The notes under the pieces: model-generated
The model's input: only the letters and a program-made list of their open reading frames with translations
Told to the model about the DNA's origin: nothing
Database searches by the model: none
Origin: Nocardioides aurantiacus
GTDB lineage: Bacteria; Actinomycetota; Actinomycetes; Propionibacteriales; Nocardioidaceae
Assembly: GCF_003752505.1 (NCBI RefSeq)
Contig: NZ_RKHO01000001.1
Span: 62,001 to 126,000, forward strand
Length of the DNA stretch: 64,000 nt
Direction of reading: 5' to 3'
Shown: piece by piece, positions 1 through 29,294 of the stretch
Numbering within the stretch: position 1 is the first letter of the stretch
Layout: every line of letters starts with the position of its first letter
Program-made: the position numbers and the translations under genes

Positions 1-1101
1 GGGGGCGAAGAAGTAGCCCTGCGCCAGGTCGCCGTCGGTGACCCGGTGGCCGCCGACGAGGACGGTGGCTCCCTCGGCGACCCCGGCCTCGACGTACGCC
101 GTGACCTTGTCGAGGTGGGCCTGCGAGATCAGGGCGCCGGTCTCGGCCTGCTCGTCGAAGGGGCCGCCGAGCCGGATGGCGGCGGCGCGGCGTACGAGCT
201 CGGCGGTGAAGTCCTGGGCGACCGCGTCCTCGACCAGCAGCCGGGCGCCCGCCGAGCAGACCTGGCCGGAGTGCAGGAACACCGCGGTCAGCGCCATGTC
301 GAGCGCGACCTCGAGGTCGGCGTCGGCGAAGACGATGTTGGGGTTCTTGCCGCCGAGCTCGAGCGCGACCTTCTTCACCGTCCGCGACGCCGCGGCCATG
401 ATCCGCTTGCCGGTCTCCAGGCCGCCGGTGAAGGAGACGAGGTCGACGCGGGGGTCCTCGCTCAGCAGCGCGCCGGCGTGGGGCCCGTCGCCGAGGACGA
501 GGTTGCCGACGCCCGGCGGCAGCCCGGCCTCGTCGAGCAGCCGCAGCAGGTGGACCGCCGTGCTGGGCGAGAGCTCGCTGGGCTTGAGCACGAAGGTGCA
601 ACCGGCGGCCAGCGCGGGGGCGACCTTCCACGACACCTGGAGCAGCGGGTAGTTCCACGGGGTGATCAGGCCGCAGACGCCCACCGGCTCGGTGACCACG
701 CGGCTGACGACGCCGGGGTTGCCGGTGTCGACGACCCGGCCGGCACCCGCGTCGGCGACGTGGCCGAAGTGCCGGAAGACGCTGGTGACGTCGTCGATGT
801 CGAGCTCGCTCTCGGCGAGCCGCTTGCCGGTGTCGAGCGACTCGGCCCGCGCCAGCTCGGCCCGGTCGCGCTGCAGCAGGTCGGCCACGCGGAGCAGCAG
901 GTCGCCCCGCTCGCGGGCGCTGGTGCCCGGCCAGGTGCCCTCGTCGAACGCGGTGCGGGCCGCGGCGACGGCGGCCTCGGTGTCGACCTGCGTCGACTCG
1001 TCGACCTCGGCCACCAGCGTGCCGTCGGCGGGGCAGCGGATCTCGCGACGGCCCCCGGCGCGCGCCGAGCTCCAGGATCCGGCGATGAAGTTCTCGGGCA
1101 T
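1..1101 (-). CDS. Aldehyde dehydrogenase (betaine-aldehyde type), C-terminus beyond the window
   Basis: NAD(P)-dependent oxidation of an aldehyde to the acid. The 367 codons present begin MPENFIAG and hold both family signatures: the general-base Glu in ELGGK and the nucleophile Cys in SGQVCSAG, plus the PWNYP and FTGG segments of the cofactor fold. About 120 C-terminal residues are missing because the gene runs off the left edge. The start at 1101 is set by an AAGGACGG ribosome site about 9 nt upstream. It reads in the same direction as the IclR gene at 1251-2048, and a 17-bp palindrome lies just upstream. The sequence style is that of betaine-aldehyde dehydrogenases, which would fit the methylamine locus at 5-13 kb. 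The exact substrate is inference. Confidence 0.93.
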   Translation of the reverse strand, partial: MPENFIAGSWSSARAGGRREIRCPADGTLVAEVDESTQVDTEAAVAAARTAFDEGTWPGTSARERGDLLLRVADLLQRDRAELARAESLDTGKRLAESELDIDDVTSVFRHFGHVADAGAGRVVDTGNPGVVSRVVTEPVGVCGLITPWNYPLLQVSWKVAPALAAGCTFVLKPSELSPSTAVHLLRLLDEAGLPPGVGNLVLGDGPHAGALLSEDPRVDLVSFTGGLETGKRIMAAASRTVKKVALELGGKNPNIVFADADLEVALDMALTAVFLHSGQVCSAGARLLVEDAVAQDFTAELVRRAAAIRLGGPFDEQAETGALISQAHLDKVTAYVEAGVAEGATVLVGGHRVTDGDLAQGYFFAP

Positions 1102-1250: not shown

Positions 1251-2048
1251 TCACCGGGCGCCCCAGCCCAGCCGGTGGGAGAGCTCGTCGGACGCCTCGA
1301 CCAGCAGGGGGAGCACCCGCTGCATCCGCTCGTCGGTCAGCCGGAAGGTCGGCCCGGAGACGCTGACGGAGCAGACCACGTCGCCGTGGGCGTTGCGCAC
1401 CGGCGCCGCGGCGGCGGCGAGGCCGACCTCCAGCTCGTCGACGGCCAGGGCGTACCCCTGCTCGCGGACCAGCTCCAGCTCCTTGCGCAGCGCGGCCCGC
1501 GAGGTGATGGTCAGCCCGGTGTACGACGGCAGCCGGCCCAGCAGCTGCTTGAGCTCGTCGTCCTCCAGCCAGGCCATCAGCACCTTGCCGTTGCTCGTCG
1601 CGTGCAGCGGGATGTGCTGGCCCACCCAGTTGTGCGGCTGCAGCGCGCTCGGCCCGGCCACCTGGTCGAGGTAGAGCGCCGACCCGCCGCTGAGGGTGGC
1701 CAGGTTGACCGTCTCGCCGGTGGCGGTGGCCAGCTGCTTGCACAGCGGTCGGGCCTCCTGCACCACGTCGAGCCGGGCGCTGGTGGCCCCGGCGAGGCGG
1801 AGCAGGCCGACGCCGAGGCGGTACTTGCCACGACCCTCGACCTGCTCGACCAGCCCGTGCTGCTCCAGCGTCGCCACCAGCCGGAAGGCCGTGCTCTTGT
1901 GCACCTCGAGTGCGGCGGCCACCTCGGTCACGCCCGACTCGCCCGAGCGTGCCAGGATCTCGAGGATGCGCAGCGCCCGGTCGACCGACTGCACGCCGCC
2001 CGTCGCGGCGGGCACCAGCTCCCGCTCCGCCGCGGCCGTGTTGCTCAT
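1251..2048 (-). CDS. IclR family transcriptional regulator
   Basis: A 265-residue DNA-binding regulator with the standard IclR layout. The N-terminal winged helix-turn-helix covers about residues 20-80 (SVDRALRILEILA, then VTEVAAALEVHKSTAFRLVATLE). The C-terminal GAF-like effector domain covers about 95-260, with the typical HATSNGKVLMAW segment and GLAAAAAPV loop. It lies upstream of and codirectional with the aldehyde dehydrogenase, the most likely target. TAGGTT sits 6 nt before the ATG and there is no ribosome site, so the transcript is probably leaderless. The effector is unknown. It is a different protein from the second IclR regulator at 7223. Confidence 0.95.
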   Translation of the reverse strand: MSNTAAAERELVPAATGGVQSVDRALRILEILARSGESGVTEVAAALEVHKSTAFRLVATLEQHGLVEQVEGRGKYRLGVGLLRLAGATSARLDVVQEARPLCKQLATATGETVNLATLSGGSALYLDQVAGPSALQPHNWVGQHIPLHATSNGKVLMAWLEDDELKQLLGRLPSYTGLTITSRAALRKELELVREQGYALAVDELEVGLAAAAAPVRNAHGDVVCSVSVSGPTFRLTDERMQRVLPLLVEASDELSHRLGWGAR

Positions 2049-2796: not shown

Positions 2797-4620
2797 TCAG
2801 GGGTGGACGAGCCCGAGCGGGACCCGCAGCAGCGGCCCCGGGGCGCAGGTGGCGACGGGATGGGGGACGGGACCCGCGACCGACCCGGCGGCCGGGCCGT
2901 CGTCCTCGAGCGGCAGCGTGAAGTAGAAGGTCGATCCGACGCCCACCTCGCTCTCGGCCCAGACCCGGCCGCCGTTGGCCTCGACGATGCGTCGGGTGAT
3001 GGACAGGCCCAGGCCGGTGCCCGACTGCTGCCGGGCGTCGTCCGGCTCGACCTGGTGGAAGCGGTCGAAGACGGCCTCGAGCTCACCCGGGGGGATGCCG
3101 CGGCCGGTGTCGCTCACCGAGACGCGCAGGCCCTCCTCGGTGCGGCGGGCGTCGATGGTGACGGTGCCGCCGGGTGGCGTGAACTTGAGGGCGTTTCCGA
3201 CCAGGTTGACCAGGGCCTGGGTGACCCGGTCGCCGTCGCAGACCACCCGGGCGGGGCAGGCGGCGATCCGCACCTCGACGCCGGCCTCGCGCGCGAGCGC
3301 GTCCAGCGACCCGACGGCGTCCGCGAGCAGGGGCAACAGGTCGTGCGGGGCGGGGCGGAACCCGAACTCGCCGCTCTCCAGGCGTTCGAGGTCGATGATG
3401 TCGTCGACCAGCCGGGAGAGCCGCTCGCTGCCGCGGGTCGCCATCTCCACCACGGGGCGGGCGGGCGCCGGCAGCTCGCCGGCGTCGCCGTCGGCGAGCA
3501 GCTCCAACGACCCGCGGATCGCGGTGAGCGGGGTCCGCAGCTCGTGGCTCACGGCGGAGACGAACTCCCGCTTCATGGCGTCGAGCCGCTGGTGCTCGGC
3601 GGTGAGGTCCCGCAGCTCCTGGGTGCGGTCGGCGACCCGTCGCTCCAGGTCGTCCCGAAGCCGCAGGTTCGTGGTCGTGAGCAGCACCTGGCGCAGGCCG
3701 GTGACCACCAGGACGAGGGTGACCAGGACCGCCTGCGCGGTGTCGCTGACGCCGACGACGACCGCGACGGCCAGCGCGGCGAAGGCGGCGAGGTCGGGCA
3801 GCAGGGGCGCGATCGGGCCGGCGAGGTGGGGCAGCAGCCGTCGTACGCGGGTCTCGAGCGTCGCGGCCGCCAGCGCCGCGCTCGCGAGCAGCAGCGCGGC
3901 CACGACGTAGCCGAGCAGGTAGACGTCGCCGAGCTGCTCGCCGCGCACGCTGCTCAGCGCGAAGCCCAGGTCGGCGACCGCGAACGCCGCGAAGGTGGAG
4001 GCGATCAGCACGACGTCGACGCGCAGCCGGCCGGCGGTGCGCAGCAGCAGCACCACCAGCAGCGACAGGATGACGACGTCCATCACGGGGTAGACCAGGA
4101 ACACGAAGGCGCGGGTGCCCGCCAGGGTGTGCGCCACCTCGGACAGCCCGAGCACCATGCTGAGGAGCAGCATCGAGGAGGCCATCACCAGCCCGTCGAG
4201 CAGCGCCGGTCGCCAGGCGCGCCGCAGGCCGCTGGTCATCGGGTAACGCAGCAGCGCGATGCCGGCGGGGACCACGGCGGCGAGGTAGAGCGCGTCGGAC
4301 CAGGACAGCGAGCGGTCGCCGTCGGACCCTCCGTCGGCCAGCCAGTACGTCGCTCCGACGGCGTTGAGCAGGATCATCACCGCGAACAGCAGCCAGGACA
4401 GTCGCATCGGGCCGGTGTTGCGCAGCCCGGCGTGCAGCGCGCACAGCGTGGCGAGGGCGGCGGCCACCACGCCGACGGAGTCGCTGGTCACCGGGCCCCA
4501 GGCGTGCCCGCCGAGCACGACGACGCAGGCGAGCACCAGCAGCGAGACGATGACGACCGCACCGAGCCGCAGCACGACCCGGTCGGGTCCCGGGCTCGCC
4601 CGCGGGCGCGACGACGGCAT
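2797..4620 (-). CDS. Membrane-bound sensor histidine kinase (orphan)
   Basis: Two-component sensor kinase of 607 residues. Roughly residues 15-310 form a hydrophobic sensor region with about eight to ten membrane segments and no recognisable periplasmic domain. A short coiled linker (DLERRVADRTQELRDL) leads to the HisKA dimerisation domain with the phosphorylated His in SHELRTPL. The HATPase domain follows: N box NLVGNALKF, G1 DTGRGIP, and G2 GTGLGLSI. No response regulator lies next to it, so the partner is elsewhere. It follows the formyl-THF deformylase gene on the same strand after a 79-nt gap, which may or may not be read through. The signal is unknown. Confidence 0.93.
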   Translation of the reverse strand: MPSSRPRASPGPDRVVLRLGAVVIVSLLVLACVVVLGGHAWGPVTSDSVGVVAAALATLCALHAGLRNTGPMRLSWLLFAVMILLNAVGATYWLADGGSDGDRSLSWSDALYLAAVVPAGIALLRYPMTSGLRRAWRPALLDGLVMASSMLLLSMVLGLSEVAHTLAGTRAFVFLVYPVMDVVILSLLVVLLLRTAGRLRVDVVLIASTFAAFAVADLGFALSSVRGEQLGDVYLLGYVVAALLLASAALAAATLETRVRRLLPHLAGPIAPLLPDLAAFAALAVAVVVGVSDTAQAVLVTLVLVVTGLRQVLLTTTNLRLRDDLERRVADRTQELRDLTAEHQRLDAMKREFVSAVSHELRTPLTAIRGSLELLADGDAGELPAPARPVVEMATRGSERLSRLVDDIIDLERLESGEFGFRPAPHDLLPLLADAVGSLDALAREAGVEVRIAACPARVVCDGDRVTQALVNLVGNALKFTPPGGTVTIDARRTEEGLRVSVSDTGRGIPPGELEAVFDRFHQVEPDDARQQSGTGLGLSITRRIVEANGGRVWAESEVGVGSTFYFTLPLEDDGPAAGSVAGPVPHPVATCAPGPLLRVPLGLVHP

Positions 4621-4699: not shown

Positions 4700-5596
4700 C
4701 TAGCGAAAGACCACCGTGCGGTGGCCGTCGAGGCGCACCCGCGACTCGCTGTGCCAGCGCACGGCGCGCGACAGCACGGCCGCCTCGACGTCGCGGCCGG
4801 CCGCGACCAGCTGGGCCTGGTCGTGGTTGTGGTCGACGCGGATCACGTCCTGCTCGATGATCGGGCCCTCGTCGAGGTCGGCGGTGACGTAGTGCGCGGT
4901 CGCGCCGATCAGCTTCACGCCCCGGTCGAAGGCCTGGTGGTAGGGCTTGGCGCCCTTGAAGCTGGGCAGGAACGAGTGGTGGATGTTGATCGCCTGGCCC
5001 GAGAGTCGTCGGCAGACGTCGTCGGAGAGCACCTGCATGTAGCGCGCGAGCACGACGAGGTGGATGCCGAGCTCCTCGTGCAGCGCCATCAGCTCGGCCT
5101 CGGCGTCGTCCTTGGTCGCGGCCGTGACCGGGATGTGGCGGAACTCCAGCCCGTGGGAGCGCACCAGCGGCTCGGCGTCGCGGTGGTTGGAGACCACGAC
5201 CGGGATGTCGACGTGCAACGACCCGGTGGAGTGTCGGAACAGCAGGTCGTTGAGGCAGTGCAGGTGCTTGCTGACCATGATCAGGGTGCGGTACGGCGTG
5301 ACCGCGTCCCACAGCTCGAAGGTCATCTCGAAATCGGCGGCCGTCCCCGCGAACTCCTCGCGCAGCTGCTCGACCGACGGCCGGTCCTTTGGCGGCGCCG
5401 TCATCGCGAAGTCGATGCGCATGAAGAAGCGCCCGTTGAGCCGGTCGCCGAACTGCTGGCTCTCCACGATGTTGCCGCCGTGGCGGACCAGGAACCCGGT
5501 CACCGCGTGCACGATGCCGGGCCGGTCGGGGCAGTCCAGTGCGAGCACGAAGTCGCCGGACGGTGGTCCGGCGTTGGTGGACGCAGGTGTGACCAT
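4700..5596 (-). CDS. purU: Formyltetrahydrofolate deformylase
   Basis: Hydrolyses 10-formyl-THF to formate and THF. The 298-residue product has an N-terminal ACT domain (about 14-90, CPDRPGIVHAVTGFL). A formyltransferase-fold catalytic domain follows, with INIHHSFLPSFKGAKPYHQAF and the downstream TADLDEGPIIEQD carrying the Asn/His/Asp active site. Its ATG overlaps the stop of the MttB-family gene by one base (TGATG), so the two are translationally coupled. That coupling suggests the enzyme disposes of one-carbon units released by demethylation, rather than serving purine synthesis alone. Confidence 0.95.
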   Translation of the reverse strand: MVTPASTNAGPPSGDFVLALDCPDRPGIVHAVTGFLVRHGGNIVESQQFGDRLNGRFFMRIDFAMTAPPKDRPSVEQLREEFAGTAADFEMTFELWDAVTPYRTLIMVSKHLHCLNDLLFRHSTGSLHVDIPVVVSNHRDAEPLVRSHGLEFRHIPVTAATKDDAEAELMALHEELGIHLVVLARYMQVLSDDVCRRLSGQAINIHHSFLPSFKGAKPYHQAFDRGVKLIGATAHYVTADLDEGPIIEQDVIRVDHNHDQAQLVAAGRDVEAAVLSRAVRWHSESRVRLDGHRTVVFR

Positions 5597-7056
5597 CAGT
5601 CCCCGAGCTCCTTGCGACGGCGGACGACGAACTCTTCCATCTCCTGCCGGATCGCCTCGTCGAGGGGTGGCTGCTCGTAGGACTCCAACCGGTCGGCGTA
5701 GATCTTCGAGGCGCGGGCCGCGGCGTCGAGACCGCCGTTGCGCGACCACTTCTCGTAGTTGTCCGAGGAGGACAGCAGCGGCCGGTAGAAGCAGGTCCGG
5801 AACCGCTCCATGGTGTGCATCGCGCCCAGGAAGTGGCCTCCGGCGCCGACCTCCTCGTGGGCACCGAACGCCAGCGAGGCCTCGTCGATCTCGAGCGGGG
5901 TGAACTCGGCGCGCATCATCTGGAGCAGCTCGACGTCGACGATGAACTTCTCGTAGCCCGCGACCAGGCCACCCTCGAGCCAGCCGGCGGAGTGCATCAC
6001 CCAGTTGGTGCCGGCCAGGAAGGTCGGCAGCAGCGTCATCAGGGCCTCGTAGCCGGCCTGCGCGTCCGGGACCTGCGAGGAGGTGAGGGTGCCGCCGGAG
6101 CGGAACGGCAGCCCGAAGTGACGGGCGATCTGGCCGGTGCAGAGCAGGCCCATGCCCGACTCGGGGGTGCCGAAGGTGGGCGAGCCCGACTGCATGTCGA
6201 TGTTGGACAGGAACGACCCGAACACGACCGGGCAGCCCGGCCGGATGGTCTGCGCCAGCGCGATGCCGGTCAGCGCCTCGGCGATCTGCTGCACCAGCGC
6301 CGCCGGGATCGTCACCGGGCTCATGGCGCCCATGAGGATGAAGGGCGTGAGCACGACGGCCTGGTTGGCCTCGGCGTACTCGAAGAGCGAGTCGAGCATC
6401 CGGTCGTCCCACCGCAGCGGGGAGTTGCAGTTGATCAGCGAGATCAGCGCCGGCGTCTGCTCCATGCTGGCCCGGCCGGCCTCGCGCCCCGCCGACCCGC
6501 CGAGCAGGATCGAGGTCAGCTCGATGGTGTCGCGGGCGTTGGGGCCCGAGACCACGTTGCCCATGAACGGCTTGTCGGTGAGCGTCGCCAGCGCGTAGGT
6601 CATGTCGAGGTGGCGGCTGTCGAGCGGGGTGTCGTTGGGCTCGCAGATCACGCCGCCGGCGGAGTCCAGGACCGGGAACGACTGGGCCAGCTTGGTGAAG
6701 TTGCGGAAGTCCTCCATGGTCGCGTCACGGCGTACGTCGCCCTGGCGCACGAACGGCGGGCCGTAGACCGCGCCGAAGGCCATCGCGTCGCCGCCGACGT
6801 GCACGGAGTGCTCGGGGTTGCGGGCCTGCAGGTCGAACTCGCGCGGCGCCTTCGCCACCTGCGCGAGGATCCAGTCGGGGTCGAACTTGACGTTGTCGCC
6901 CTCGACTTTCTGGCCCTCGGCCGCGAGCAGGTCCAGGGCGCGCTGGCTCATGAACTCCACGCCCAGCTCGCTCACCAGCCGCCGCCAGCCCTTGTCCAGC
7001 GTGGCCATGGCGTCGGCGGAGAGGACCTCGTAGTGGGGCATCCGGTTGCGGAACAT
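5596..7056 (-). CDS. MttB-family corrinoid methyltransferase, non-pyrrolysine (glycine-betaine-type)
   Basis: 486 residues, the usual length of the trimethylamine methyltransferase (MttB) superfamily. It should move a methyl group from a methylated amine to a cobalamin protein. The reading frame has no internal UAG, so it lacks the pyrrolysine of true trimethylamine enzymes. It therefore belongs with the non-Pyl branch, whose characterised members (MtgB, MtpB, MtcB) demethylate glycine betaine, proline betaine and carnitine. The start at 7056 has ACGAGGAG about 7 nt upstream. It is coupled to purU behind it and is divergent from the IclR-corrinoid operon, with an imperfect palindrome in the shared promoter. 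The substrate is inferred to be a quaternary amine and cannot be read from sequence. Confidence 0.92.
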   Translation of the reverse strand: MFRNRMPHYEVLSADAMATLDKGWRRLVSELGVEFMSQRALDLLAAEGQKVEGDNVKFDPDWILAQVAKAPREFDLQARNPEHSVHVGGDAMAFGAVYGPPFVRQGDVRRDATMEDFRNFTKLAQSFPVLDSAGGVICEPNDTPLDSRHLDMTYALATLTDKPFMGNVVSGPNARDTIELTSILLGGSAGREAGRASMEQTPALISLINCNSPLRWDDRMLDSLFEYAEANQAVVLTPFILMGAMSPVTIPAALVQQIAEALTGIALAQTIRPGCPVVFGSFLSNIDMQSGSPTFGTPESGMGLLCTGQIARHFGLPFRSGGTLTSSQVPDAQAGYEALMTLLPTFLAGTNWVMHSAGWLEGGLVAGYEKFIVDVELLQMMRAEFTPLEIDEASLAFGAHEEVGAGGHFLGAMHTMERFRTCFYRPLLSSSDNYEKWSRNGGLDAAARASKIYADRLESYEQPPLDEAIRQEMEEFVVRRRKELGD

Positions 7057-7146
7057 GCGGCTCCTCGTGAGCTGGCGGGCGGACGGCGCCGAAACCGACG
7101 CGGGGTGGGTGCTTGACCGTGGCGACGCGGGAAACCTAGCCTCACC

Positions 7147-7168
7147 ATGTGGTCAACGTGATCCACAT
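7147..7168. promoter_or_regulatory. Candidate IclR operator in the divergent mttB / iclR promoter
   Basis: Imperfect 22-bp palindrome: ATGTGG and CCACAT arms around a central ACGT, 16 of 22 positions symmetrical. It lies in the 166-bp gap (7057-7222) between the leftward MttB gene and the rightward IclR operon, so one site could control both sides. No other gene is visible in the gap. Function is inferred from symmetry and position. Confidence 0.5.
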
Positions 7169-7222
7169 CATGGGAATCCCGTGCGGGACAACCTTGGACC
7201 TGCGCCGGGAGGGCGGTCAAGC

Positions 7223-8001
7223 GTGACGGGCGACCGGAGTGGCGAGAGCACCAGCGGGACGCAGGCGGTCGACCGTGCTGCGGCGCTGCTGACCCGCATC
7301 GTCGAGGCCGACCGCCCCGTCACCTTCGCCGAGCTGACCGAGGAGCTCGGGCTGGCCCGCTCGACCACCTCGCGGCTGCTCAACGCGCTGGAGCGTGGAC
7401 GGCTGCTCGAGCGCACCGCCCCGGGGGAGTACCGCGGCGGACCCCTCTTCGTGCTGTACGCCGCCCGCCACGACCGCACCCAGCAGCTGGCCCGGCTCGC
7501 GACACCGATCCTGGAGGCCGTCGGTGAGGTGACCCGCGAGACGGTGCACCTCGCGGTCGCCAACGGCGGCTGGGTCGAGCACGTCGCCCAGGTCGACGGC
7601 ACCTACCTCCTCGGCGCCAGCGACTGGAACGACGTCGAGGTGCCGGTGCACTGCTCGGCGCTGGGCAAGGTGCTGCTGGCGTGGAAGCGCCTCGAGCTGC
7701 CCGACGGGCGTCTGGCGGCCCCGACCGACCAGACGATCACGCTGCGCACCGACCTCGAGGAGGACCTCGAGTGGGTGCGCGAGCACGGCTACGCCGTCAC
7801 CCACGACGAGCTCGAGATCGGGCTGTCCGGCGTCGCCGCCCCTGTCTTCGGCCCCGACGACGACGTGGTCGCCGCGGTCGGTGTGTCCGGTCCCACGGCG
7901 CGGCTGGAGCAGCGCGCCGAGGAGATCGGGCAGCTCCTGGTCCACCACGCCCGGACGCTCTCGAGGCGGCTCCAGCCCGGCACCCCCACGGAAGGCGCGA
8001 C

Positions 8002-8005
<4 letters not shown>
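7223..8005 (+). CDS. IclR family regulator of the corrinoid methyltransferase locus
   Basis: 260-residue IclR protein. The winged helix-turn-helix covers about residues 12-75 (ELTEELGLARSTTSRLLNALE). The effector domain covers about 85-255, with HCSALGKVLLAW and the conserved GLSGVAAPVFG. The GTG at 7223 is chosen because GGGAGGG lies about 9 nt upstream and protein similarity begins there; the open frame further left overlaps the divergent gene. Its stop overlaps the corrinoid protein start (ATGA), so the regulator is the first gene of the operon it probably controls. The effector is likely the methylated substrate or its product (inference). Confidence 0.94.
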
Positions 8006-8666
<661 letters not shown>

Positions 8667-8667
<1 letters not shown>

Positions 8668-9611
8668 TGTCGGGCGAGATGGCAGCCCCGCTGCACACCA
8701 CCATCCGTTCGGCCACGCGTGAGCTCGTGATCGGCAGCGACCGGCCGTTCTGCATCATCGGTGAGCGCCTGAACCCCACGGGGCGCCGGATCTTCCAGGA
8801 CCAGATCAAGGCCGGCGACCTCTCCGCGGTCGGGCGTGACGTCAAGGCCCAGGTCGAGGGGGGCGCCGACGTGCTCGACATCAACATGGGGGTGCCGTTG
8901 GTCGACGAGGCCGAGCTGCTGGCGAAGGTCATCACGATGGTCCAGGGCCTGACCGACCTGCCGATCTGCATCGACTCCTCGGTCGTCGAGGCGCTCGAGG
9001 CGGGCCTGTCGGTCTACCAGGGCCGGGCGCTGGTCAACTCGATCACCGCCGAGGACGAGCGTCTCGAGCAGGTGCTGCCGCTGGTGAAGAAGTACGACGC
9101 CGCGGTCGTCGCGCTGCCCAACGACGTCGACGAGATCCCGATGGAGGCCGAGAAGCGCCTCCTGCTGGTGGAGAAGATCGTCCGCGTCGCGACGCAGGAG
9201 TACGGCATCGCCATCGAGGACATCGTGATCGACCCGCTGGCGATGCCCATCGGCGCCGACCAGGCCACCGGCCTCTCGACGCTGGAGACGATGCGCGGCA
9301 TCCGGGAGCGCTGGGGCATGAACATGACCTGTGGCGCCTCCAACGTCTCCTTCGGCATGCCCGGGCGCCACGAGCTCAACGGCGCGTGGCTCGCGATGGC
9401 CATGACCGCCGGGCTCTCCAGCGCGATCATGGACGCCCGCACGCCGAGCGTCGTGTCGGCGGTCCGCGCCGCGGACCTGCTCCTGGGCCACGACGAGTGG
9501 GGCATGGCGTGGATCTCGCGCGCCCGCGCGGCCCAGGCCGCCCAGAAGGCGGCTGAGAAGGCGGCCGCCGAGGCCGCCCTGGCCGCGACCGCCGAGCCCG
9601 CCGCCACGTGA
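8667..9611 (+). CDS. Methyltetrahydrofolate:corrinoid methyltransferase (MtgA-like)
   Basis: 314 residues with the pterin-binding TIM-barrel of the dihydropteroate synthase / MeTr family: IGERLNPTGR near the start, GGADVLDINMGVP, ICIDSSVVEALEAGL, VNSIT, then MTCGASNVSFG. It should transfer methyl from the corrinoid protein to THF, giving 5-methyl-THF, as MtgA does in glycine-betaine-using anaerobes. The last 30 residues are an Ala-rich low-complexity tail. ATG 8667 overlaps the previous stop; the next gene starts four bases before this stop. The frame is open further upstream, but the homology begins at 8667. Confidence 0.94.
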
Positions 9612-11548
9612 GTGGTCCGGTGCCCCCCGACGTCGCCGTGGCCGAGCTGCGCCGCGAGGGGCTGATCGCGCCCCCCGGGGCCGACCAGCCGATCCACGAC
9701 GGCAGCGGGCGGGTGCAGCTGTCCTTCACCGTGATCGACGGGCAGGACCGCACCGTGCGCGTCCCGACCGGGGTGACCGTCTTCGACTCCGCGTCGTGGA
9801 ACGGCATCGCGATCGACTCGACCTGCGGCGGCCACGGCACCTGCCACAAGTGCAAGGTCCGGCTCGACGTCGGCACCCCGGTGACGCGCCACGACCGGCG
9901 CACCTTCTCCGACGGCGAGCTCGACCAGGGCTGGCGGCTGGCCTGCCTGGCCACCGCGACGCGCGACCTCGCCGTCGAGGTGCCGCCGCTGACCACCCGT
10001 CCCAAGGCGGCCACGGTCGGCGTCGGGCGCCAGGTGATCCTGCGGCCCGCCGTGCAGAAGCGCTACGTCGAGCTGACCGAGCCCACGCTCGCCGACCAGC
10101 GCACCGACCTGGTGCGGCTCACCGACGCCGTCGACGACCTCGAGGTCACCGTCGACCTGCCGGTGCTGCGGCGGCTGGGCCGGGTGCTGCGCGAGGCCGA
10201 CTGGAAGGTCACCGCGGTGGTCGTCGACGAGGCGCTGGTCGACGTCGAGCCCGGCGACACCACCGGCTCGGCGTACGGCATCGCCTTCGACCTCGGCACC
10301 ACCACCGTCGTGGCGACGCTGCTCGACCTCACCACCGGCACGCCGGTCGCGGTGGCCTCGCGACTCAACGCCCAGCAGCCCTTCGGTGGCGACGTCATCA
10401 CCCGGATCAGCGCGGTGATGCTCGACCCCGACGCGCTCGACCGGCTCCAGGGGCTGGCCGCGGCCACGCTCGACGAGCTGGCCCAGCAGGTCTGCGTCGA
10501 GGGCGGCATCGACCCGGCGCAGGTCTACGAGTGCGCCGTGGCCGGCAACGCCACGATGACCTCGCTGCTGCTCGGCATCGACCCGGAGCCGCTCGGGGTG
10601 GCGCCGTTCGTGATGCCGACGGCCCACCCGCCGGTCGTGCTGGCGGCCGAGGTCGGTCTGCGGCTGCACCCGCGGGCGCGGCTCGCGCTGTTCCCGGCGC
10701 TCGGTGCCTACGTCGGCGGCGACATCGTGGCCGGCATGCTCGCCACCGGCATGGACCGCGACAAGCGCACCCGGCTCTTCGTCGACGTCGGCACCAACTG
10801 CGAGATCGTGCTCAGCGACGGCGACACCCTCGTCTCGACCGCGGCCCCGGCCGGGCCCGCCTTCGAGGGCGGCGCCATCCGCTGCGGCATGCGGGCCGCC
10901 GACGGCGCGATCGAGGTGGTCACGGTCGACGTGGGCGAGGGGACCGTCACGCTCGGCGTGATCGGCGACGTCGAGCCGCGCGGGCTGTGCGGCTCCGGCC
11001 TGGTCGACGCGGTCTCCGAGCTGGTCCGGGTCGGGCTGCTCGATGCGTCGGGCCGGTTCGTGCCCGAGGAGCAGGCCGCCGCCACGCTGCCGCTGCTCGC
11101 CGACCGGCTGACCAAGGTGGGGGAGGAGCGGGTCTTCGTGCTCCACCGGCCCGCGCCCGACACCGACGTCGCCGAGTGCGTCTACCTCTCCCAGCGCGAC
11201 GTCCGCGAGCTGCAGTTCGCCAAGGCCGCCATCGCCACGGGCTGGGCGCTGCTGCTGGAGCAGCTGGGGCTCGAGCAGGGCGACGTGCAGCAGGTGCTGC
11301 TCGCCGGCTCCTTCGGCTCCTACCTCTCGCCCGCCTCCGCGATCCGGATCGGGCTGGTGCCCAAGATCCCGGTGCTGCGCATCGTCTCGGCCGGCAACGT
11401 CGCGGGCGAGGGCGCCAAGATGGCGCTGCTCTCGCTGCGCGAGCGCGCCGGCGCCACCACGCTCCTGGAGGAGGTGGAGTATGTCGAGCTCTCGGACCGT
11501 CCCGAGTTCAACGACCGGTTCGTCGACCAGCTCTCCTTCCCGGGGTGA
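9608..11548 (+). CDS. Fe-S/ASKHA-domain corrinoid reactivase (RamA/RACo-like)
   Basis: 646 residues. An N-terminal [2Fe-2S] ferredoxin domain has Cys73, Cys79, Cys82 and Cys113 (STCGGHGTCHKC ... LACLA). A linker follows, then a large ATP-binding ASKHA region (AFDLGTTTVVATLLDL near residue 228; VDVGTNCEI and CGSGLVDAV further on). Proteins of this build use ATP and low-potential electrons to return inactive Co(II) corrinoid to Co(I), so this one should keep the corrinoid protein active. Its GTG start overlaps the previous stop (GTGA). The electron donor is not encoded in the window. Confidence 0.95.
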   Translation: MSGPVPPDVAVAELRREGLIAPPGADQPIHDGSGRVQLSFTVIDGQDRTVRVPTGVTVFDSASWNGIAIDSTCGGHGTCHKCKVRLDVGTPVTRHDRRTFSDGELDQGWRLACLATATRDLAVEVPPLTTRPKAATVGVGRQVILRPAVQKRYVELTEPTLADQRTDLVRLTDAVDDLEVTVDLPVLRRLGRVLREADWKVTAVVVDEALVDVEPGDTTGSAYGIAFDLGTTTVVATLLDLTTGTPVAVASRLNAQQPFGGDVITRISAVMLDPDALDRLQGLAAATLDELAQQVCVEGGIDPAQVYECAVAGNATMTSLLLGIDPEPLGVAPFVMPTAHPPVVLAAEVGLRLHPRARLALFPALGAYVGGDIVAGMLATGMDRDKRTRLFVDVGTNCEIVLSDGDTLVSTAAPAGPAFEGGAIRCGMRAADGAIEVVTVDVGEGTVTLGVIGDVEPRGLCGSGLVDAVSELVRVGLLDASGRFVPEEQAAATLPLLADRLTKVGEERVFVLHRPAPDTDVAECVYLSQRDVRELQFAKAAIATGWALLLEQLGLEQGDVQQVLLAGSFGSYLSPASAIRIGLVPKIPVLRIVSAGNVAGEGAKMALLSLRERAGATTLLEEVEYVELSDRPEFNDRFVDQLSFPG

Positions 11549-12170
11549 GGGGTCCGGCCGCACCGCGCTGGTCGCCTGCGGGGCGATCGCCCAGCCCGCC
11601 GCGCGGATCGTCGCGGCGCAGGGGTGGCCGGTCGACGTCCACCCGCTGCCGCCGCTGCTGCACAACCGGCCCGACCGGATCGCCGGCGAGGTGGAGTCGC
11701 TGGTCACGCGGGTGCGGCCGGCGTACGACGCGGTGGTGGTGGGATACGCCGACTGCGGCACCTACGGCGCGCTCGACGCGGTGTGCGAGCGGCTCGGCGT
11801 ACGCCGCCTGTCCGGGCTGCACTGCTACGACGTCTTCGCCGGAGCAACCCGCGTCGAGGAGCTGCTCGAGGACCAGCCGGGCACCTACCTGCTGACCGAC
11901 TTCCTGGCGCGCTCGTTCGCGCGGACCGTCGAGCAGGAGCTCGGCCTGGACCGCTTCCCCGAGCTGCTGGACGCCTACTTCGGCCACTACACCCGCGTCG
12001 TGTGGCTGGCCCAGAGCGACGACGCGACCGAGCTGGCCGAGCTGCGGCCGCTCGCCCAGGATGCCGCGGACCGCCTCGGGCTGCCGCTGCAGGTCGTGCC
12101 CACCGGCACCGACGGGCTGATGCTGGCCCTGCGGTCGCTGCTCCCCGAGGAGTCCCTGTGTCCACCATGA
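11481..12170 (+). CDS. DUF1638 domain protein in the corrinoid operon
   Basis: 229 residues, function unknown. The DUF1638 core starts at about residue 27 (ALVACGAIA) and carries conserved-looking cysteines in VACGAIA, YADCGTYGA and LHCYD, which could bind a metal or corrin. The only standard start is ATG 11481, which overlaps the reactivase gene by 68 nt. It is supported by a strong GGAGGAGGT stretch just upstream. Relatives are repeatedly found beside methylamine/corrinoid methyltransferase genes, which suggests a role in corrinoid handling or substrate supply. This is inference from context only. Confidence 0.85.
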   Translation: MSSSRTVPSSTTGSSTSSPSRGEGSGRTALVACGAIAQPAARIVAAQGWPVDVHPLPPLLHNRPDRIAGEVESLVTRVRPAYDAVVVGYADCGTYGALDAVCERLGVRRLSGLHCYDVFAGATRVEELLEDQPGTYLLTDFLARSFARTVEQELGLDRFPELLDAYFGHYTRVVWLAQSDDATELAELRPLAQDAADRLGLPLQVVPTGTDGLMLALRSLLPEESLCPP

Positions 12171-13054
12171 AGATCCCCACCGGCGTACGCCGCAGCCAGC
12201 GCGGCCCCCGCGCCCAGCGCGCCACCCGCGAGCAGGCGATGCGCCGGCTGCTGGAGCACACCCGCTACGAGGTGCTCCCGACCGCCACCACCGAGGACAA
12301 GGTCCTGGCCGCCGTGCCGACCGACGTCGCGGTGACCGTGACCGCGTCGCCGGGCAAGGGCCTGGAGGCGACGCTGACGCTCAGCGAGACCCTCGCCGGC
12401 CACGGGTACGCCGTCGTGCCCCACCTCGCCGCCCGCATGGTCCGCGACCACGCGGAGCTGGTCGACATCCGGGCCCGGTTGCGCGCCGCCGGCATCTCCG
12501 CGGTGTTCGTACCGGGCGGCGACGCCGAGCCGGCCGGCGACTACACCGACGCCTTCAGCCTGCTCGAGGACCTCGCGACGCTGGCCGACCCGTTCACCCA
12601 CGTCGGGATCGCGGGCTACCCCGAGAGCCATCCCACCATCGCCGACGACCTGACCGTGCAGGCGATGTGGGACAAGCGCCGCCACGCCACCCACGTGGTG
12701 AGCAACCTGACCTTCGACGCCGCGACGATCCGCGACTGGGTCGGCCGGATGCGGCTGCGGGGGATCACGATGCCGTTGCTGCTCGGCATGCCCGGCCCCA
12801 TCGACCGCGCCAAGCTGCTGACGATGGCGACCAAGATCGGCGTGGGGGAGTCGACCCGCTTCCTGGCCAAGCACAAGGGCACCTTCGCCCGCCTCGCCGC
12901 CCCCGGCGGCTTCACCGGCGAGCGCTTCCTGCGCGACTGCGCCACCGTCGCCGCCCAGCCGACCGCCGGCATCGAGGGCCTCCACGTCTTCACCTTCAAC
13001 CAGGTCGCCGAGACCGAGGCCTGGCGTCAGGGGCTCCTCTCCGAGCTCCCCTGA
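12158..13054 (+). CDS. Methylenetetrahydrofolate reductase-like protein
   Basis: 298 residues resembling the MetF TIM-barrel family: VTVTASPGKGLEATL at the usual start strand, HLAARMV, VFVPGGD, GIAGYPESHP, VSNLTFDA, PLLLGMPGP. In this operon it is best read as running in the oxidative direction, converting 5-methyl-THF from the corrinoid system into methylene-THF. GTG 12158 has CGAGGAG 5-6 nt upstream and is preferred over the ATG at 12167, which overlaps the DUF1638 stop. The stop codon runs directly into the first unit of the 32-bp repeat array. The electron acceptor and direction are inference. Confidence 0.88.
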   Translation: MSTMKIPTGVRRSQRGPRAQRATREQAMRRLLEHTRYEVLPTATTEDKVLAAVPTDVAVTVTASPGKGLEATLTLSETLAGHGYAVVPHLAARMVRDHAELVDIRARLRAAGISAVFVPGGDAEPAGDYTDAFSLLEDLATLADPFTHVGIAGYPESHPTIADDLTVQAMWDKRRHATHVVSNLTFDAATIRDWVGRMRLRGITMPLLLGMPGPIDRAKLLTMATKIGVGESTRFLAKHKGTFARLAAPGGFTGERFLRDCATVAAQPTAGIEGLHVFTFNQVAETEAWRQGLLSELP

Positions 13055-13862: not shown

Positions 13863-15815
13863 CTACCAGATGCGGACGCGGTCGGCCTCGTCGAGCCAGA
13901 GGCCGTCGCCGGGCTTCACCTCGAACGCCTCGTGGAACTCCTCGAGGTTGCGGGCGATGTTGGCGCGGAACTCCGGCGGGGAGTGGGGGTCGGTGGCCAG
14001 GAAGGTCGTGGCCAGCTCTTCGCGGCGCTTGGTGCGCCAGACGTAGGCCCAGTTGAGGAACAGCCGCTGCACGCCGGTCAGGCCGTCGCGCTCGGGCACG
14101 GGCTCCTCGCCGAGGAAGATCCGGTAGGCCTTGAGCGCGATGGTCAGGCCGCCGAGGTCGCCGATGTTCTCCCCGACGGTCAGGGCGCCGTTGACGTGCT
14201 CGCCGGGGAGGTCGCGCGGCTCGTAGCCGTCGTACTGGCTGATCAGCGCCTTGGACTTCACCTCGAAGGCGGCCTTGTCGGCCGGGGTCCACCAGTCGTT
14301 GAGGTTGCCGTGGCCGTCGTACTGCGCGCCCTGGTCGTCGAAGCCGTGCCCGATCTCGTGGCCGATGACCGCGCCGATGCCGCCGTAGTTCTCGGCCGGG
14401 TCGGCCTCGGCGTCGAAGAACGGCTTCTGCAGGATGCCGGCCGGGAAGCAGATCTCGTTGGTGCCGGGGTTGTAGTAGGCGTTGACGGTCTGCGGGAGCA
14501 TGAACCACTCGTCGCGGTCGACGGGGGCGCCGATCTTGCGCAGCTCGCGGTCGGTCTCGTAGGCCGTGGAGGCGAGCACGTTGCCGAGCAGGTCGTCGGA
14601 GGAGATGGCCAGGTCGGAGTAGTCGCGCCACTTCTCGGGGTAGCCGATCTTGGGCACGAAGGTGTCGAGCTTGTCGTAGGCCCGCTGCTTGGTCTCCTCG
14701 GTCATCCAGTCCAGGCCGGAGATCGACTGTCGGTAGGCCTCGAGGAGGTTGGCCACGAGACCGTCCATCAGCTCCTTGGAGCGCGGCGGGAAGTGACGCG
14801 AGACGTACTCCCGGCCGACCGCCTCGCCCAGCGCGCCCTGCACCAGCGCGACGCCGCGCTTCCAGCGCGCCCGCAGTTCGGGCGTGCCGGACAGGGTGCG
14901 GCCGTAGAAGTCGAAGTTGGTCTCCACGAAGTCGCCCGAGAGGTAGGCCGCGGCGGTGCGCAGCGCGCGCACGGTCAGGAACGCCTTCCAGTCCTCGATC
15001 GAGGCCTCGCCGAGCACGACCTCGAGGTGCTCGAAGAACGAGGGCTGCCGCACGATCGTCTCGGCGATGGTGGCCCGGTCGCCGCCGAGCGCGGCGATCC
15101 ACGCGGTGAAGTCGAAGCTGGGCACGGTCGCCTCGAGCTCGGCCAGGGTGCGCAGGTTGTAGGTCTTGATGACGTCGCGGGTGGCCGCGCGCTCCCAGTG
15201 GCCCGCGGCGATGCGGGTCTCCAGGGCCAGCACGCGCGCGGCGGTGGCCTCGGCGTCGGGCCGCTCGGCCAGGGTCAGCAGCCGACGGAGGTAGGCGACG
15301 TACTTCTCCCGCACCTCGGCGTGCTTGTCCTCGCGGTAGTAGCTCTCGTCGGGCAGGCCGATGCCGCCCTGGCCGACCTGGACGAGGTAGCGGTCGGAGT
15401 CACGGTCGTCGGTGTCGACGAAGGAGCCGAACAGCCCACCGCCGCCGCGCCGCTCGAAGGCCCCGAGGAACTGCGCCAGCGAGGCCAGGTCGGAGATCGC
15501 GTCGACCTGCTCCAGCAGCGGCACGATCGGGCTGTAGCCCAGCTCGTCCACGCGCTCCTCGTCCATGAAGCTGGCGTAGAGGTCGCCGATCTTGCGCGCC
15601 TCCTCGCCCTCGATGCGGCCCTGGGCGCAGGCCTCGACGATCTCGCGGACGTGCTCCTCGGCCTGGTCGGCGAGCATCACGAACGGGCCCCACGAGGAGC
15701 GGTCGTCGGGGATGGTCGCGGAGTCGAGCCACCGGCCGTTGACGTGGCCGAACAGGTCGTCCTGCACGCGGATGTCGGGGTCCATGCCCTCGCGGGCGTC
15801 GTCGAGGATCGTCAC
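13863..15815 (-). CDS. M13 family metallopeptidase (neprilysin/PepO-like)
   Basis: About 650 residues, a zinc endopeptidase that cuts small peptides. The zinc site is HEIGHGFD (HExxH) with the third ligand Glu in GENIGDLGG about 60 residues on. The NAYYNPGTNEICFPAGIL substrate-cleft motif and the C-terminal FRANIARNLEEFHEAF segment are typical. There is no signal peptide or membrane anchor, unlike animal neprilysins, so it is probably cytoplasmic. The start is GTG 15815 (TILDDAREGMDPD...) or ATG 15785 (MDPDIRVQ); neither has a strong ribosome site. The stop is followed by the inverted 32-bp repeats. Confidence 0.94.
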   Translation of the reverse strand: MTILDDAREGMDPDIRVQDDLFGHVNGRWLDSATIPDDRSSWGPFVMLADQAEEHVREIVEACAQGRIEGEEARKIGDLYASFMDEERVDELGYSPIVPLLEQVDAISDLASLAQFLGAFERRGGGGLFGSFVDTDDRDSDRYLVQVGQGGIGLPDESYYREDKHAEVREKYVAYLRRLLTLAERPDAEATAARVLALETRIAAGHWERAATRDVIKTYNLRTLAELEATVPSFDFTAWIAALGGDRATIAETIVRQPSFFEHLEVVLGEASIEDWKAFLTVRALRTAAAYLSGDFVETNFDFYGRTLSGTPELRARWKRGVALVQGALGEAVGREYVSRHFPPRSKELMDGLVANLLEAYRQSISGLDWMTEETKQRAYDKLDTFVPKIGYPEKWRDYSDLAISSDDLLGNVLASTAYETDRELRKIGAPVDRDEWFMLPQTVNAYYNPGTNEICFPAGILQKPFFDAEADPAENYGGIGAVIGHEIGHGFDDQGAQYDGHGNLNDWWTPADKAAFEVKSKALISQYDGYEPRDLPGEHVNGALTVGENIGDLGGLTIALKAYRIFLGEEPVPERDGLTGVQRLFLNWAYVWRTKRREELATTFLATDPHSPPEFRANIARNLEEFHEAFEVKPGDGLWLDEADRVRIW

Positions 15816-18799: not shown

Positions 18800-18870
18800 A
18801 CCAGAGCTGCGCTCGTTGTTCAGGTCTTCGTGCAGATCTGTCGGGAAGTTGCCGGATAAACCATCTGCCG

Positions 18871-18888
18871 GTCTAGTCCCATATAGAC
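18871..18888. promoter_or_regulatory. Inverted repeat in the promoter region of the TasA-like gene
   Basis: GTCTA and TAGAC arms separated by 8 nt, within the 206-bp gap 18800-19005, the most AT-rich stretch in this neighbourhood. The gap holds no gene, and it probably carries the promoter for the TasA-like/signal peptidase pair. Regulator unknown. Confidence 0.3.
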
Positions 18889-21303: not shown

Positions 21304-21924
21304 GTGACCACGACGCGGGTGCCCCAGGGCGAGCGGAGCCGCGTCATGCGGCAACGGCTGCTCGAGGCCACCGTGGAGTGCCTGGTCGAGCACGGCTGGA
21401 GCGGCACGTCGACGACGCTGGTCTCCCAGCGCGCCGGGGTCAGCCGCGGCGCCCAGCTCCACCACTTCCCCACCAAGAGCGACCTGGTGCTGGCCGCCGT
21501 CGCCCACCTCAGCGAGGTGCGGGGCGAGGAGCTGCGGGTGGCGGCCGCGTCGCTGCCGTCCGGGGCGCGGCGCACGCGCGCGGTCCTGGAGATGTTCGCC
21601 GAGCACTTCACCTCGCCGGTCTTCGCCGCCGCGCTCGAGCTGTGGGTCGCGGCCCGCACCGACGCCGAGCTGCGCGCCGCGGTCGGGCCGCTGGAGCAGC
21701 GGGTCGGGCGCGAGGCCCACCGGATCGCGCTCGACGCCCTCGGCGCCGACGAGTCGCACCCGGGCGTCCGCGAGCTGGTGCAGGCCACGCTCGACCTGGT
21801 GCGCGGCCTCGGCCTCGCCAACACGATCAGCGACGACGCCGCCCGGCGCCGCCGGATCCTCGACCGGTGGGCGCGCACCCTCGACGCCGCACTGGACCCC
21901 GACGCCGCACCGGAGGCCCCGTGA
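21304..21924 (+). CDS. TetR family regulator of the acyl-CoA operon
   Basis: 206 residues. The helix-turn-helix lies at about 15-62 (RLLEATVECLVEHGWSGTSTTLVSQRAGVSRGAQLHHFPTKSDLV), followed by a helical ligand domain. The start is GTG 21304. The stop overlaps the next gene (GTGA), making this the first gene of a run of seven tightly packed genes for acyl-CoA metabolism. A strong palindrome lies just upstream. The ligand is probably an acyl-CoA intermediate of the pathway (inference from the operon). Confidence 0.94.
   Translation: MTTTRVPQGERSRVMRQRLLEATVECLVEHGWSGTSTTLVSQRAGVSRGAQLHHFPTKSDLVLAAVAHLSEVRGEELRVAAASLPSGARRTRAVLEMFAEHFTSPVFAAALELWVAARTDAELRAAVGPLEQRVGREAHRIALDALGADESHPGVRELVQATLDLVRGLGLANTISDDAARRRRILDRWARTLDAALDPDAAPEAP

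Positions 21925-25613: not shown

Positions 25614-25617
<4 letters not shown>
24460..25617 (+). CDS. Acyl-CoA dehydrogenase
   Basis: 385 residues, FAD-dependent alpha,beta-dehydrogenation of an acyl-CoA. Seen are the N-terminal helical domain, the FAD-binding LAVTEPGGGSDVAGIRTTA, YVDVRVPVANLVG, and the C-terminal helices with RQVVQHQLVEMH and QLHGGAGYMHGTEVERHYRD. The segment that usually supplies the catalytic Glu (EGTxE) reads IGGGATEV here, so the base must come from elsewhere, as in the isovaleryl-CoA-type branch. GTG 24460 overlaps the AtuA stop, and the stop overlaps the carboxylase start. A branched substrate such as isovaleryl- or citronellyl-CoA fits the operon. Confidence 0.94.
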
Positions 25618-27206
<1,589 letters not shown>

Positions 27207-27215
27207 GGGAACGAC

Positions 27216-29290
<2,075 letters not shown>

Positions 29291-29294
<4 letters not shown>

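What the first reader, a model, noticed from the sequence alone, without database searches (positions are those of the whole stretch)
4700..13054. Self-contained corrinoid demethylation and one-carbon oxidation locus in an aerobic-type actinobacterium
Eight adjacent genes give a near-complete route: non-Pyl MttB-type methyltransferase, corrinoid carrier, methyl-THF:corrinoid methyltransferase, RamA/RACo-type reactivase, an MTHFR-like enzyme and formyl-THF deformylase, with an IclR regulator and a DUF1638 protein. Each protein's family is read from motifs (DxHxxG B12 site, CX5CX2C...C ferredoxin, no UAG in the MttB gene). It is inference that they form one pathway ending in formate, and that the substrate is a betaine. 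The best-studied relatives are from anaerobes. The low-potential reactivation step in an organism of this type, with oxidative MTHFR and PurU as the sink, would be a distinctive aerobic version. The nearby betaine-aldehyde-type dehydrogenase and second IclR regulator suggest a choline/betaine link.
Basis: partly seen in the sequence, partly recalled or inferred. Interest (0 to 1): 0.85.

Follow-up and report, generated by a model that had tools for sequence, protein, structure and literature searches.

The report
Actinobacterial B12-dependent glycine betaine demethylation locus
A soil-type actinobacterium carries, beside its choline-to-betaine genes, a set of vitamin-B12-dependent genes that most likely strip a methyl group from glycine betaine and burn it to formate; this kind of aerobic pathway was reported in 2025 for marine proteobacteria, and here it is a conserved actinobacterial version with one enzyme swapped.

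Summary
Observation confirmed: PurU, a non-pyrrolysine MttB, IclR, corrinoid carrier, methyl-THF:corrinoid methyltransferase, RACo-type reactivase, DUF1638 and an MTHFR relative lie at 4700-13054. Just outside the window are BetA, a betaine/choline-type ABC importer, a dimethylglycine/sarcosine-dehydrogenase-type protein and ETF, so glycine betaine is the likely substrate. MtgB, C, D and RamA are in 54 of 54 long named relatives and the set co-occurs almost perfectly across 394 class genomes. A dyad precedes mtgB. Novelty weakens: aerobic MtgBCD + RamA + DUF1638 + MetF2 was published for marine bacteria (PMC12478193), and MetF2/PurU as methyl sink for chloromethane degraders (PMC4949252). The difference: 55 of 63 actinomycete loci use a stand-alone MTHFR whose closest solved relative is that of Sphingobium SYK-6; 5 of 63 and two alphaproteobacterial loci use MetV+MTHFR; none has both. 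The genome also has MetH, a MtgE/Bmt relative and a GbcAB-like oxygenase, so this may not be its only betaine route. New variant of a known kind; no activity shown.

The parts
1..1101 (-). BetB-type betaine-aldehyde dehydrogenase, part inside the window; whole gene in L031:15623-17101
   Evidence: TIGR01804 606 bits (below its cut-off 668.6), PF00171 548 bits; in 44 of 54 long loci
1251..2048 (-). IclR1, regulator at the head of the choline/betaine genes
   Evidence: PF01614 and PF09339; best NCBIfam BhcR, below cut-off; in 49 of 54 long loci
4700..5548 (-). PurU, formyltetrahydrofolate deformylase (proposed C1 sink to formate)
   Evidence: TIGR00655 328.6 bits over cut-off 285.95; in 42 of 54 long loci
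5596..7056 (-). MtgB-type non-pyrrolysine MttB, proposed glycine betaine:corrinoid methyltransferase
   Evidence: PF06253 612 bits; no in-frame stop; glycine betaine methyltransferase 9yce at E 4.7e-111
7147..7168 (.). operator-like dyad ATGTGG-N10-CCACAT between the divergent mtgB and iclR2 genes
   Evidence: at least 10 of 12 half-site bases in 57 of 78 mtgB upstream regions against 32 of 3900 shuffles; best-scoring site in 80 kb
7223..8005 (+). IclR2, proposed local regulator
   Evidence: PF01614 102.6 bits on the longer frame 7046-8005; in 53 of 54 long loci
8002..8667 (+). MtgC-type corrinoid protein
   Evidence: PF02310 and PF02607; best NCBIfam corrin_MtgC_2, 190.6 bits, below its cut-off 370; DxHxxG here and in 74 of 74 relatives
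8667..9611 (+). MtgD-type methylcorrinoid:tetrahydrofolate methyltransferase
   Evidence: PF00809; PRK07535 307 bits over cut-off 259; 46-48% identical to two alphaproteobacterial MtgD-type proteins
9608..11548 (+). RACo-type ATP-dependent reductive activator of the corrinoid protein
   Evidence: Fer2, RACo linker, middle and ASKHA domains; CX5CX2C...C here and in 67 of 67 relatives
11481..12170 (+). DUF1638 protein, proposed helper of corrinoid reactivation
   Evidence: PF07796 84.7 bits; invariant C92, C102, H114, C115 in 38 sequences; model pLDDT 89.8 without a convincing fold match
12158..13054 (+). MetF2, divergent stand-alone MTHFR, proposed to oxidise methyl-THF
   Evidence: PF02219 34 bits; closest solved relative is Sphingobium SYK-6 MTHFR 7xg9/7xlf by sequence (3e-40) and by fold (TM 0.76)

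Best explanation
It is an aerobic corrinoid-dependent glycine betaine demethylation module joined to choline oxidation. Choline is imported and oxidised to glycine betaine by BetA and BetB. MtgB moves one methyl group from glycine betaine to cob(I)alamin on MtgC, leaving dimethylglycine. MtgD passes the methyl group to tetrahydrofolate. MetF2 oxidises methyl-THF to methylene-THF, FolD (elsewhere in the genome) makes formyl-THF, and PurU releases formate; in some relatives formate-THF ligase may do this and gain ATP. RACo, using ATP and a [2Fe-2S] centre, with DUF1638 as helper, rescues cob(II)alamin after oxidation. Dimethylglycine goes on to the flavin dehydrogenase and ETF. IclR2 probably regulates the divergent mtgB / iclR2-mtgCD-ramA-duf1638-metF2 units through the dyad. 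Gene content, order, conservation and the site are shown; every reaction, its direction and the regulator-site link are inferred.
For: Family matches; choline/betaine genes next door and at least one of BetA, BetB, OpuA, BCCT or DMGDH in 53 of 54 long loci; core in 54 of 54; among 394 class genomes 41 have MttB over the cut-off, of which 41 have RACo and 40 DUF1638, while 349 have none of the three over the cut-off; in seven loci (L110, L125, L126, L132, L139, L143, L158) DMGDH- and both ETF-type genes lie in the same stretch; the four residues named by docking in DhMtgB (Y94, N199, R309, H345; PMC6855144, passages) align with Y98, N209, R319, H355 here, all invariant in 15 sequences; formate-THF ligase in 18 of 54 long loci and formate dehydrogenase beside the locus in L186 point to formate; conserved dyad; CbiC and FolD elsewhere in the genome; published genetics for MtgC and MtgD in aerobic Ruegeria.
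Against: No activity or expression data. MtgB is 44-46% identical to two uncharacterised alphaproteobacterial relatives, and the fifth pocket residue proposed for DhMtgB (F353) aligns with Gly363 (by eye). The genome has a GbcAB-like oxygenase pair (GbcA 406 of 670 bits, GbcB 309 of 500), another possible betaine demethylase. PurU was missing at 50% identity in 13 of 54 long loci, 10 of which also lack formate-THF ligase in the stretch. 21 of 78 upstream regions lack a good dyad, among them all six Phycicoccus and both Kineosporia loci. L136 has no choline/betaine gene in its stretch. MetF2 could work in the reductive direction.
Confidence: 0.83

Rival explanations
1. The same machinery demethylates another quaternary amine or sulfonium (proline betaine, carnitine, gamma-butyrobetaine), while the GbcAB-like oxygenase handles glycine betaine.
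For: MttB relatives with such substrates are reported (PMC12478193 discussion); a GbcAB-like pair exists at C1:1750435; the aromatic F353 of DhMtgB is not kept (by eye).
Against: Choline/betaine genes adjoin in 53 of 54 long loci; the GbcAB-like pair is below both NCBIfam cut-offs; the four docked glycine betaine residues are invariant in 15 sequences.
Confidence: 0.1
2. MtgC and MtgD mainly form a split methionine synthase with the MtgE/Bmt-like protein, and betaine is a side donor.
For: A Bmt/MtgE relative is in the genome at C1:402947 (43.6% to the S. meliloti bmt product), and relatives of it lie near mtgB in six loci, five Phycicoccus and one Micrococcales MAG; MtgC and MtgD have this dual role in Ruegeria.
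Against: A MetH-type methionine synthase is encoded at C1:1615681; the MtgE-like gene is not at this locus in the window's genome; methyl-oxidising genes are.
Confidence: 0.1
3. MetF2 supplies methyl-THF (reductive direction), so the locus methylates the corrinoid rather than oxidising its methyl group.
For: MTHFR is reductive in most bacteria (recalled).
Against: A canonical MetF (TIGR00676 over cut-off) is present for that role; MetF2 is closest among solved structures to the MTHFR of Sphingobium SYK-6, where metF is listed with ligM and ligH and helps vanillate demethylation (PMC12997858, passages); purU is in the locus.
Confidence: 0.05

Closest known systems
Aerobic MtgBCD glycine betaine system of Ruegeria pomeroyi / Phaeobacter / Sinorhizobium (PMC12478193)
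   Same: PF06253 methyltransferase, separate corrinoid and pterin proteins, RamA-type activator, DUF1638, a second MetF; betaine genes nearby in several genomes. The paper also assigns 5% of ocean mtgC reads to Actinomycetota
   Different: Actinobacterial; MtgB 44-46%, MtgC 43-46% and RamA 31-33% identical to the Sinorhizobium and Paracoccus proteins; single divergent MetF2 instead of MetV+MTHFR; purU in the locus; two IclR genes and a conserved dyad; MetH present. The Ruegeria proteins themselves were not compared here
Anaerobic MtgB/MtgC/MtgA of Desulfitobacterium hafniense and MtgB/MtgC of Methanolobus vulcani (PMC6855144, PMC7154762, passages)
   Same: Non-pyrrolysine MttB moving a betaine methyl group to a corrinoid protein; four docked residues kept
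   Different: Here an oxidative folate route to formate is proposed; the pterin protein scores with the PRK07535 type; it was not compared with MtgA
cmu chloromethane pathway of Methylobacterium/Hyphomicrobium (PMC4949252, passages)
   Same: Methyl transfer to THF, then a divergent MetF2 and PurU to formate in aerobes
   Different: The methyltransferase here is an MttB with a separate corrinoid protein
THF-dependent O-demethylation of Sphingobium SYK-6 (ligM, metF, ligH; PMC12997858, passages)
   Same: Closest solved MTHFR is SYK-6 7xg9/7xlf; formate-THF ligase accompanies some relatives of this locus
   Different: No corrinoid step there (recalled) and vanillate as substrate

Membership tests
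MtgB (non-pyrrolysine MttB, glycine betaine methyltransferase) | PF06253 over the whole length | tested here: met
   611.9 bits, profile positions 25-500 of 500
MtgB (non-pyrrolysine MttB, glycine betaine methyltransferase) | No in-frame UAG (no pyrrolysine) | tested here: met
   Open frame without stops inside
MtgB (non-pyrrolysine MttB, glycine betaine methyltransferase) | Docked residues Y94, N199, R309, H345 of DhMtgB | tested here: met
   Y98, N209, R319, H355, read by eye from the alignment (chain numbers taken as one higher than the paper's); invariant in 15 of 15. They come from docking, not from a bound structure
MtgB (non-pyrrolysine MttB, glycine betaine methyltransferase) | Aromatic residue at F353 | tested here: not met
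   Gly363 at that column by eye; the paper gives F or Y there as a likely contact from modelling, so this is not a settled defining feature
MtgB (non-pyrrolysine MttB, glycine betaine methyltransferase) | Glycine betaine:cob(I)alamin methyl transfer | not testable with these tools
   Needs an enzyme assay
Aerobic MtgBCD system (PMC12478193) | MtgB, MtgC, MtgD, RamA-type and DUF1638 proteins together | tested here: met
   All five adjacent; 54, 54, 54, 54 and 53 of 54 long relatives
Aerobic MtgBCD system (PMC12478193) | MTHFR with a MetV-type partner, as in the Sinorhizobium and Paracoccus loci looked at here | tested here: not met
   Window and 55 of 63 actinomycete loci of at least 19 kb have MetF2, none of these 55 with a MetV match; 5 of 63 have MetV+MTHFR, 3 neither. 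Two alphaproteobacterial loci were looked at; the paper names the Ruegeria gene only as a metF paralogue
Aerobic MtgBCD system (PMC12478193) | MtgE and a dual role in methionine synthesis | tested here: inconclusive
   Bmt/MtgE relative and MetH both present elsewhere in the genome
RACo/RamA-type reductive activator | 2Fe-2S domain plus RACo linker, middle and ASKHA domains | tested here: met
   Four Pfam matches over cut-off; cysteine motif in 67 of 67 relatives
Methanogen RamA (TIGR04270) | Score over the NCBIfam cut-off | tested here: not met
   104.8 of 500 bits
cmu chloromethane system | Methyltransferase and corrinoid domain in one CmuA protein (recalled) | tested here: not met
   MtgB and MtgC are separate genes

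The most novel reading that the evidence does not exclude
Cobalamin-dependent glycine betaine demethylation is a widespread catabolic trait of aerobic actinomycetes, kept apart from methionine synthesis by MetH, in which the MTHFR step was exchanged once or more: MetV+MTHFR in lineages that include small genomes with formate dehydrogenase beside the locus (L186, 1.33 Mb, 46% G+C), and a SYK-6-type stand-alone MetF2 in Nocardioidaceae and neighbours, tuning the methyl oxidation to a different electron acceptor. DUF1638, with four invariant Cys/His residues and no fold match, would be a new kind of corrinoid-reactivation partner of RACo.
Probability: 0.35. Interest if true: 0.66.

Novelty: new variant of a known kind. 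Interest (0 to 1): 0.5.

Why it matters
Choline and glycine betaine are common compounds, and how aerobic bacteria without a betaine oxygenase demethylate betaine was worked out for marine proteobacteria only in 2025 (PMC12478193). This locus says that Nocardioides, Marmoricola, Phycicoccus and some small-genome actinomycetes may use the same B12 chemistry. It offers cultivable strains for testing RACo, the still unexplained DUF1638, and two alternative methyl-THF oxidising modules under oxygen.

Tried and rejected
Sensor kinase 2797-4575 and M13 peptidase 13863-15815 as parts: rejected, in 1 and 4 of 54 long loci. MetF2 as the same gene as the alphaproteobacterial MTHFR: rejected, 24% identity to the Paracoccus one and no BLASTP match at 1e-3 to the Sinorhizobium one. 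A methionine-synthase-only role: disfavoured, MetH present. DUF1638 by fold: 1421 matches at E up to 10, one at E below 0.001 with TM 0.25, generic alpha/beta proteins, no assignment; by sequence in the PDB 9 matches at E up to 10, best 0.019 to a viral envelope glycoprotein L, taken as chance. The dyad elsewhere: the own mtgB site scored 14.0, itself the lowest of the 40 distinct sites used to build the matrix, and the next best of the 80 kb 3.1, so this gives no link of the bet genes to IclR2. Literature searches for this locus in actinobacteria: Nocardioides + glycine betaine + trimethylamine methyltransferase 0 papers; DUF1638 + Actinobacter + corrinoid + methyltransferase 0; MtgB + glycine betaine + Actinobacter 1 wetland paper, seen only in the listing; Planktophila + betaine + methyltransferase 0; Actinomycet + MttB + glycine betaine + corrinoid 2, PMC12478193 and PMC8163858, the latter seen only in the listing. 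Only open-licence papers are held, so absence from print is not shown.
Full report
What is there. The window is C1:62001-126000 of a 4.06 Mb single-contig genome. The nearest named relative of its MttB is Marmoricola sp. Leaf446 at 99%, so this is a Nocardioidaceae genome; that these grow aerobically is recalled. IclR2, MtgC, MtgD, RamA, DUF1638 and MetF2 overlap head to tail from 7223 to 13054 with the predicted starts; MtgB and PurU run the other way from 7056 to 4700.

Beyond the window. The aldehyde dehydrogenase cut by the window edge is whole in L031, followed by BetA (TIGR01810 over its cut-off), importer ATPase, permease and OpuAC binding protein, a DAO+FAO_M+GCV_T protein of the dimethylglycine/sarcosine dehydrogenase type, and both ETF subunits. 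Genes for uptake, choline oxidation, the first demethylation and the next one thus lie within about 24 kb.

Conservation. A scan of named genomes with an alignment of 15 MttB proteins found 435 relatives; the best 80 were kept. Of these, 54 have at least 21 kb of DNA (44 of them Nocardioidaceae by their titles). In those 54, MtgB, MtgC, MtgD and RamA are present in 54, IclR2 and DUF1638 in 53, MetF2 in 52, IclR1 in 49, OpuA in 45, BetA and BetB in 44, PurU in 42, M13 peptidase in 4 and the sensor kinase in 1 (thresholds 35-45% identity by gene). These 80 are the nearest relatives, so conservation is partly descent. At a stricter PurU threshold, 26 loci have PurU alone, 15 PurU and formate-THF ligase, 3 the ligase alone and 10 neither. 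Of these 18 ligase genes one is in two pieces (L148) and two lie far from mtgB (L127, L136). A BetT-type BCCT carrier relative is in 11 of the 54.

Co-occurrence. In one sample of 394 genomes of the class, MttB is over the cut-off in 41, RACo in 44 and DUF1638 in 43; 40 have all three, and all 41 with MttB have RACo. The exceptions are G545 (no DUF1638 match), and G415, G459, G505 and G670 (no MttB); one further genome each had only a sub-threshold MttB (G562) or RACo (G150) match. In the family sample MttB is in 64 of 197 genomes, in the phylum sample in 65 of 396. Relatedness of the genomes was not removed from these counts.

Regulatory site. The mtgB-iclR2 gap holds ATGTGGTCAACGTGATCCACAT at 7147-7168. 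Half-sites read from this site were then sought in the 260 bases before mtgB in 77 other loci; with the own one, 57 of 78 match at least 10 of 12 positions, against 32 of 3900 shuffled regions, and 31 match all 12, against none. Shuffles do not remove relatedness. The six Phycicoccus and two Kineosporia loci stay below 10. No other stretch of the 80 kb scores near it. That IclR2 binds it is inference.

The MTHFR step. MetF2 is 30% identical to the genome's canonical MetF over 125 residues and 24% to the Paracoccus MTHFR. Its closest solved relatives by sequence and by fold are 7xg9/7xlf, MTHFR of Sphingobium sp. SYK-6, one with methyl-THF bound (model pLDDT 87.6). SYK-6 metF is listed with ligM and ligH, and MetF and LigH were needed when LigM was moved into another host for vanillate growth (PMC12997858, passages). 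In one Sinorhizobium and one Paracoccus plasmid locus a MetV-type protein and an MTHFR stand in the cluster. Over 63 loci of at least 19 kb, 55 have MetF2, 5 MetV+MTHFR, 3 neither and 0 both. In the MtgB tree of 86 rows the five form one branch (93/87); its grouping with Kineosporia, one locus of which has MetF2, is weak (82/18). A swap of this module is the best reading; the number and direction of swaps are not resolved.

Small-genome lineage. L186 and L187 come from single-contig genomes of 1.33 and 1.51 Mb; the stretches have 46% G+C. L186 has the choline-betaine and MtgBCD genes and, next to DUF1638, formate dehydrogenase alpha (TIGR01591 884 bits, over cut-off) and a NuoF-type partner, which could take formate to CO2. 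Its name is not known to me.

Against a simple story. The genome has a MetH-type methionine synthase, a Bmt/MtgE relative and another homocysteine methyltransferase, so methionine synthesis need not depend on MtgCD, though a link is possible. It also has a GbcAB-like pair, below both NCBIfam cut-offs, which could be a second, oxygenase-based betaine or related demethylase. FolD is elsewhere; a formate dehydrogenase in this genome was not sought. Corrin synthesis is indicated by one gene only.

DUF1638. The alignment of 38 shows invariant C92, C102, H114 and C115. The model is confident (pLDDT 89.8) but matches only generic alpha/beta folds. Price et al. 2018 found it needed for methionine synthesis in Phaeobacter, judged a part in B12 reactivation likely and offered no specific function (PMC5764234, passages). 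Its near-perfect pairing with RACo here agrees.

Known or new. Mausz et al. 2025 (PMC12478193; abstract, first of two parts of Results, the section on ocean expression, Discussion and passages seen) described this chemistry in aerobic marine bacteria, including more abundant RamA, DUF1638 and MetF2, and assigned 5% of ocean mtgC reads to Actinomycetota. PMC4949252 (passages) shows metF2 essential and purU helpful for aerobic chloromethane growth. So the kind is known; the actinobacterial form, with its swapped MTHFR, in-locus PurU or ligase, IclR pair and dyad, is a variant for which five library searches surfaced no description, two listed papers not being read.

Noticed in passing
G000:C1:1750435 (L182): GbcA-like Rieske oxygenase and GbcB-like reductase with an old-yellow-enzyme type gene beside them, a possible second betaine demethylation route
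   Followed up: partly
window 2797-4575: Sensor histidine kinase between iclR1 and purU; found in 1 of 54 long relatives
   Followed up: partly
window 21319-30451: TetR, mycothiol-isomerase-type, AtuA, two acyl-CoA dehydrogenases, carboxyltransferase and biotin carboxylase in one run: looks like an acyclic terpene or leucine-type degradation operon
   Followed up: partly
L186 15465-19993: Formate dehydrogenase alpha and NuoF-type subunit convergent with DUF1638 in a 1.33 Mb actinomycete genome
   Followed up: partly
L125, L126, L132, L153, L157, L159 (for example L157 4080-4973): Bmt/MtgE-like homocysteine methyltransferase gene in the mtgB neighbourhood of five Phycicoccus loci and one Micrococcales MAG; the L159 one is short
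   Followed up: partly
window 18863-18884: Second, weak match to the dyad (score 3.1 against 14.0), not interpreted
   Followed up: no
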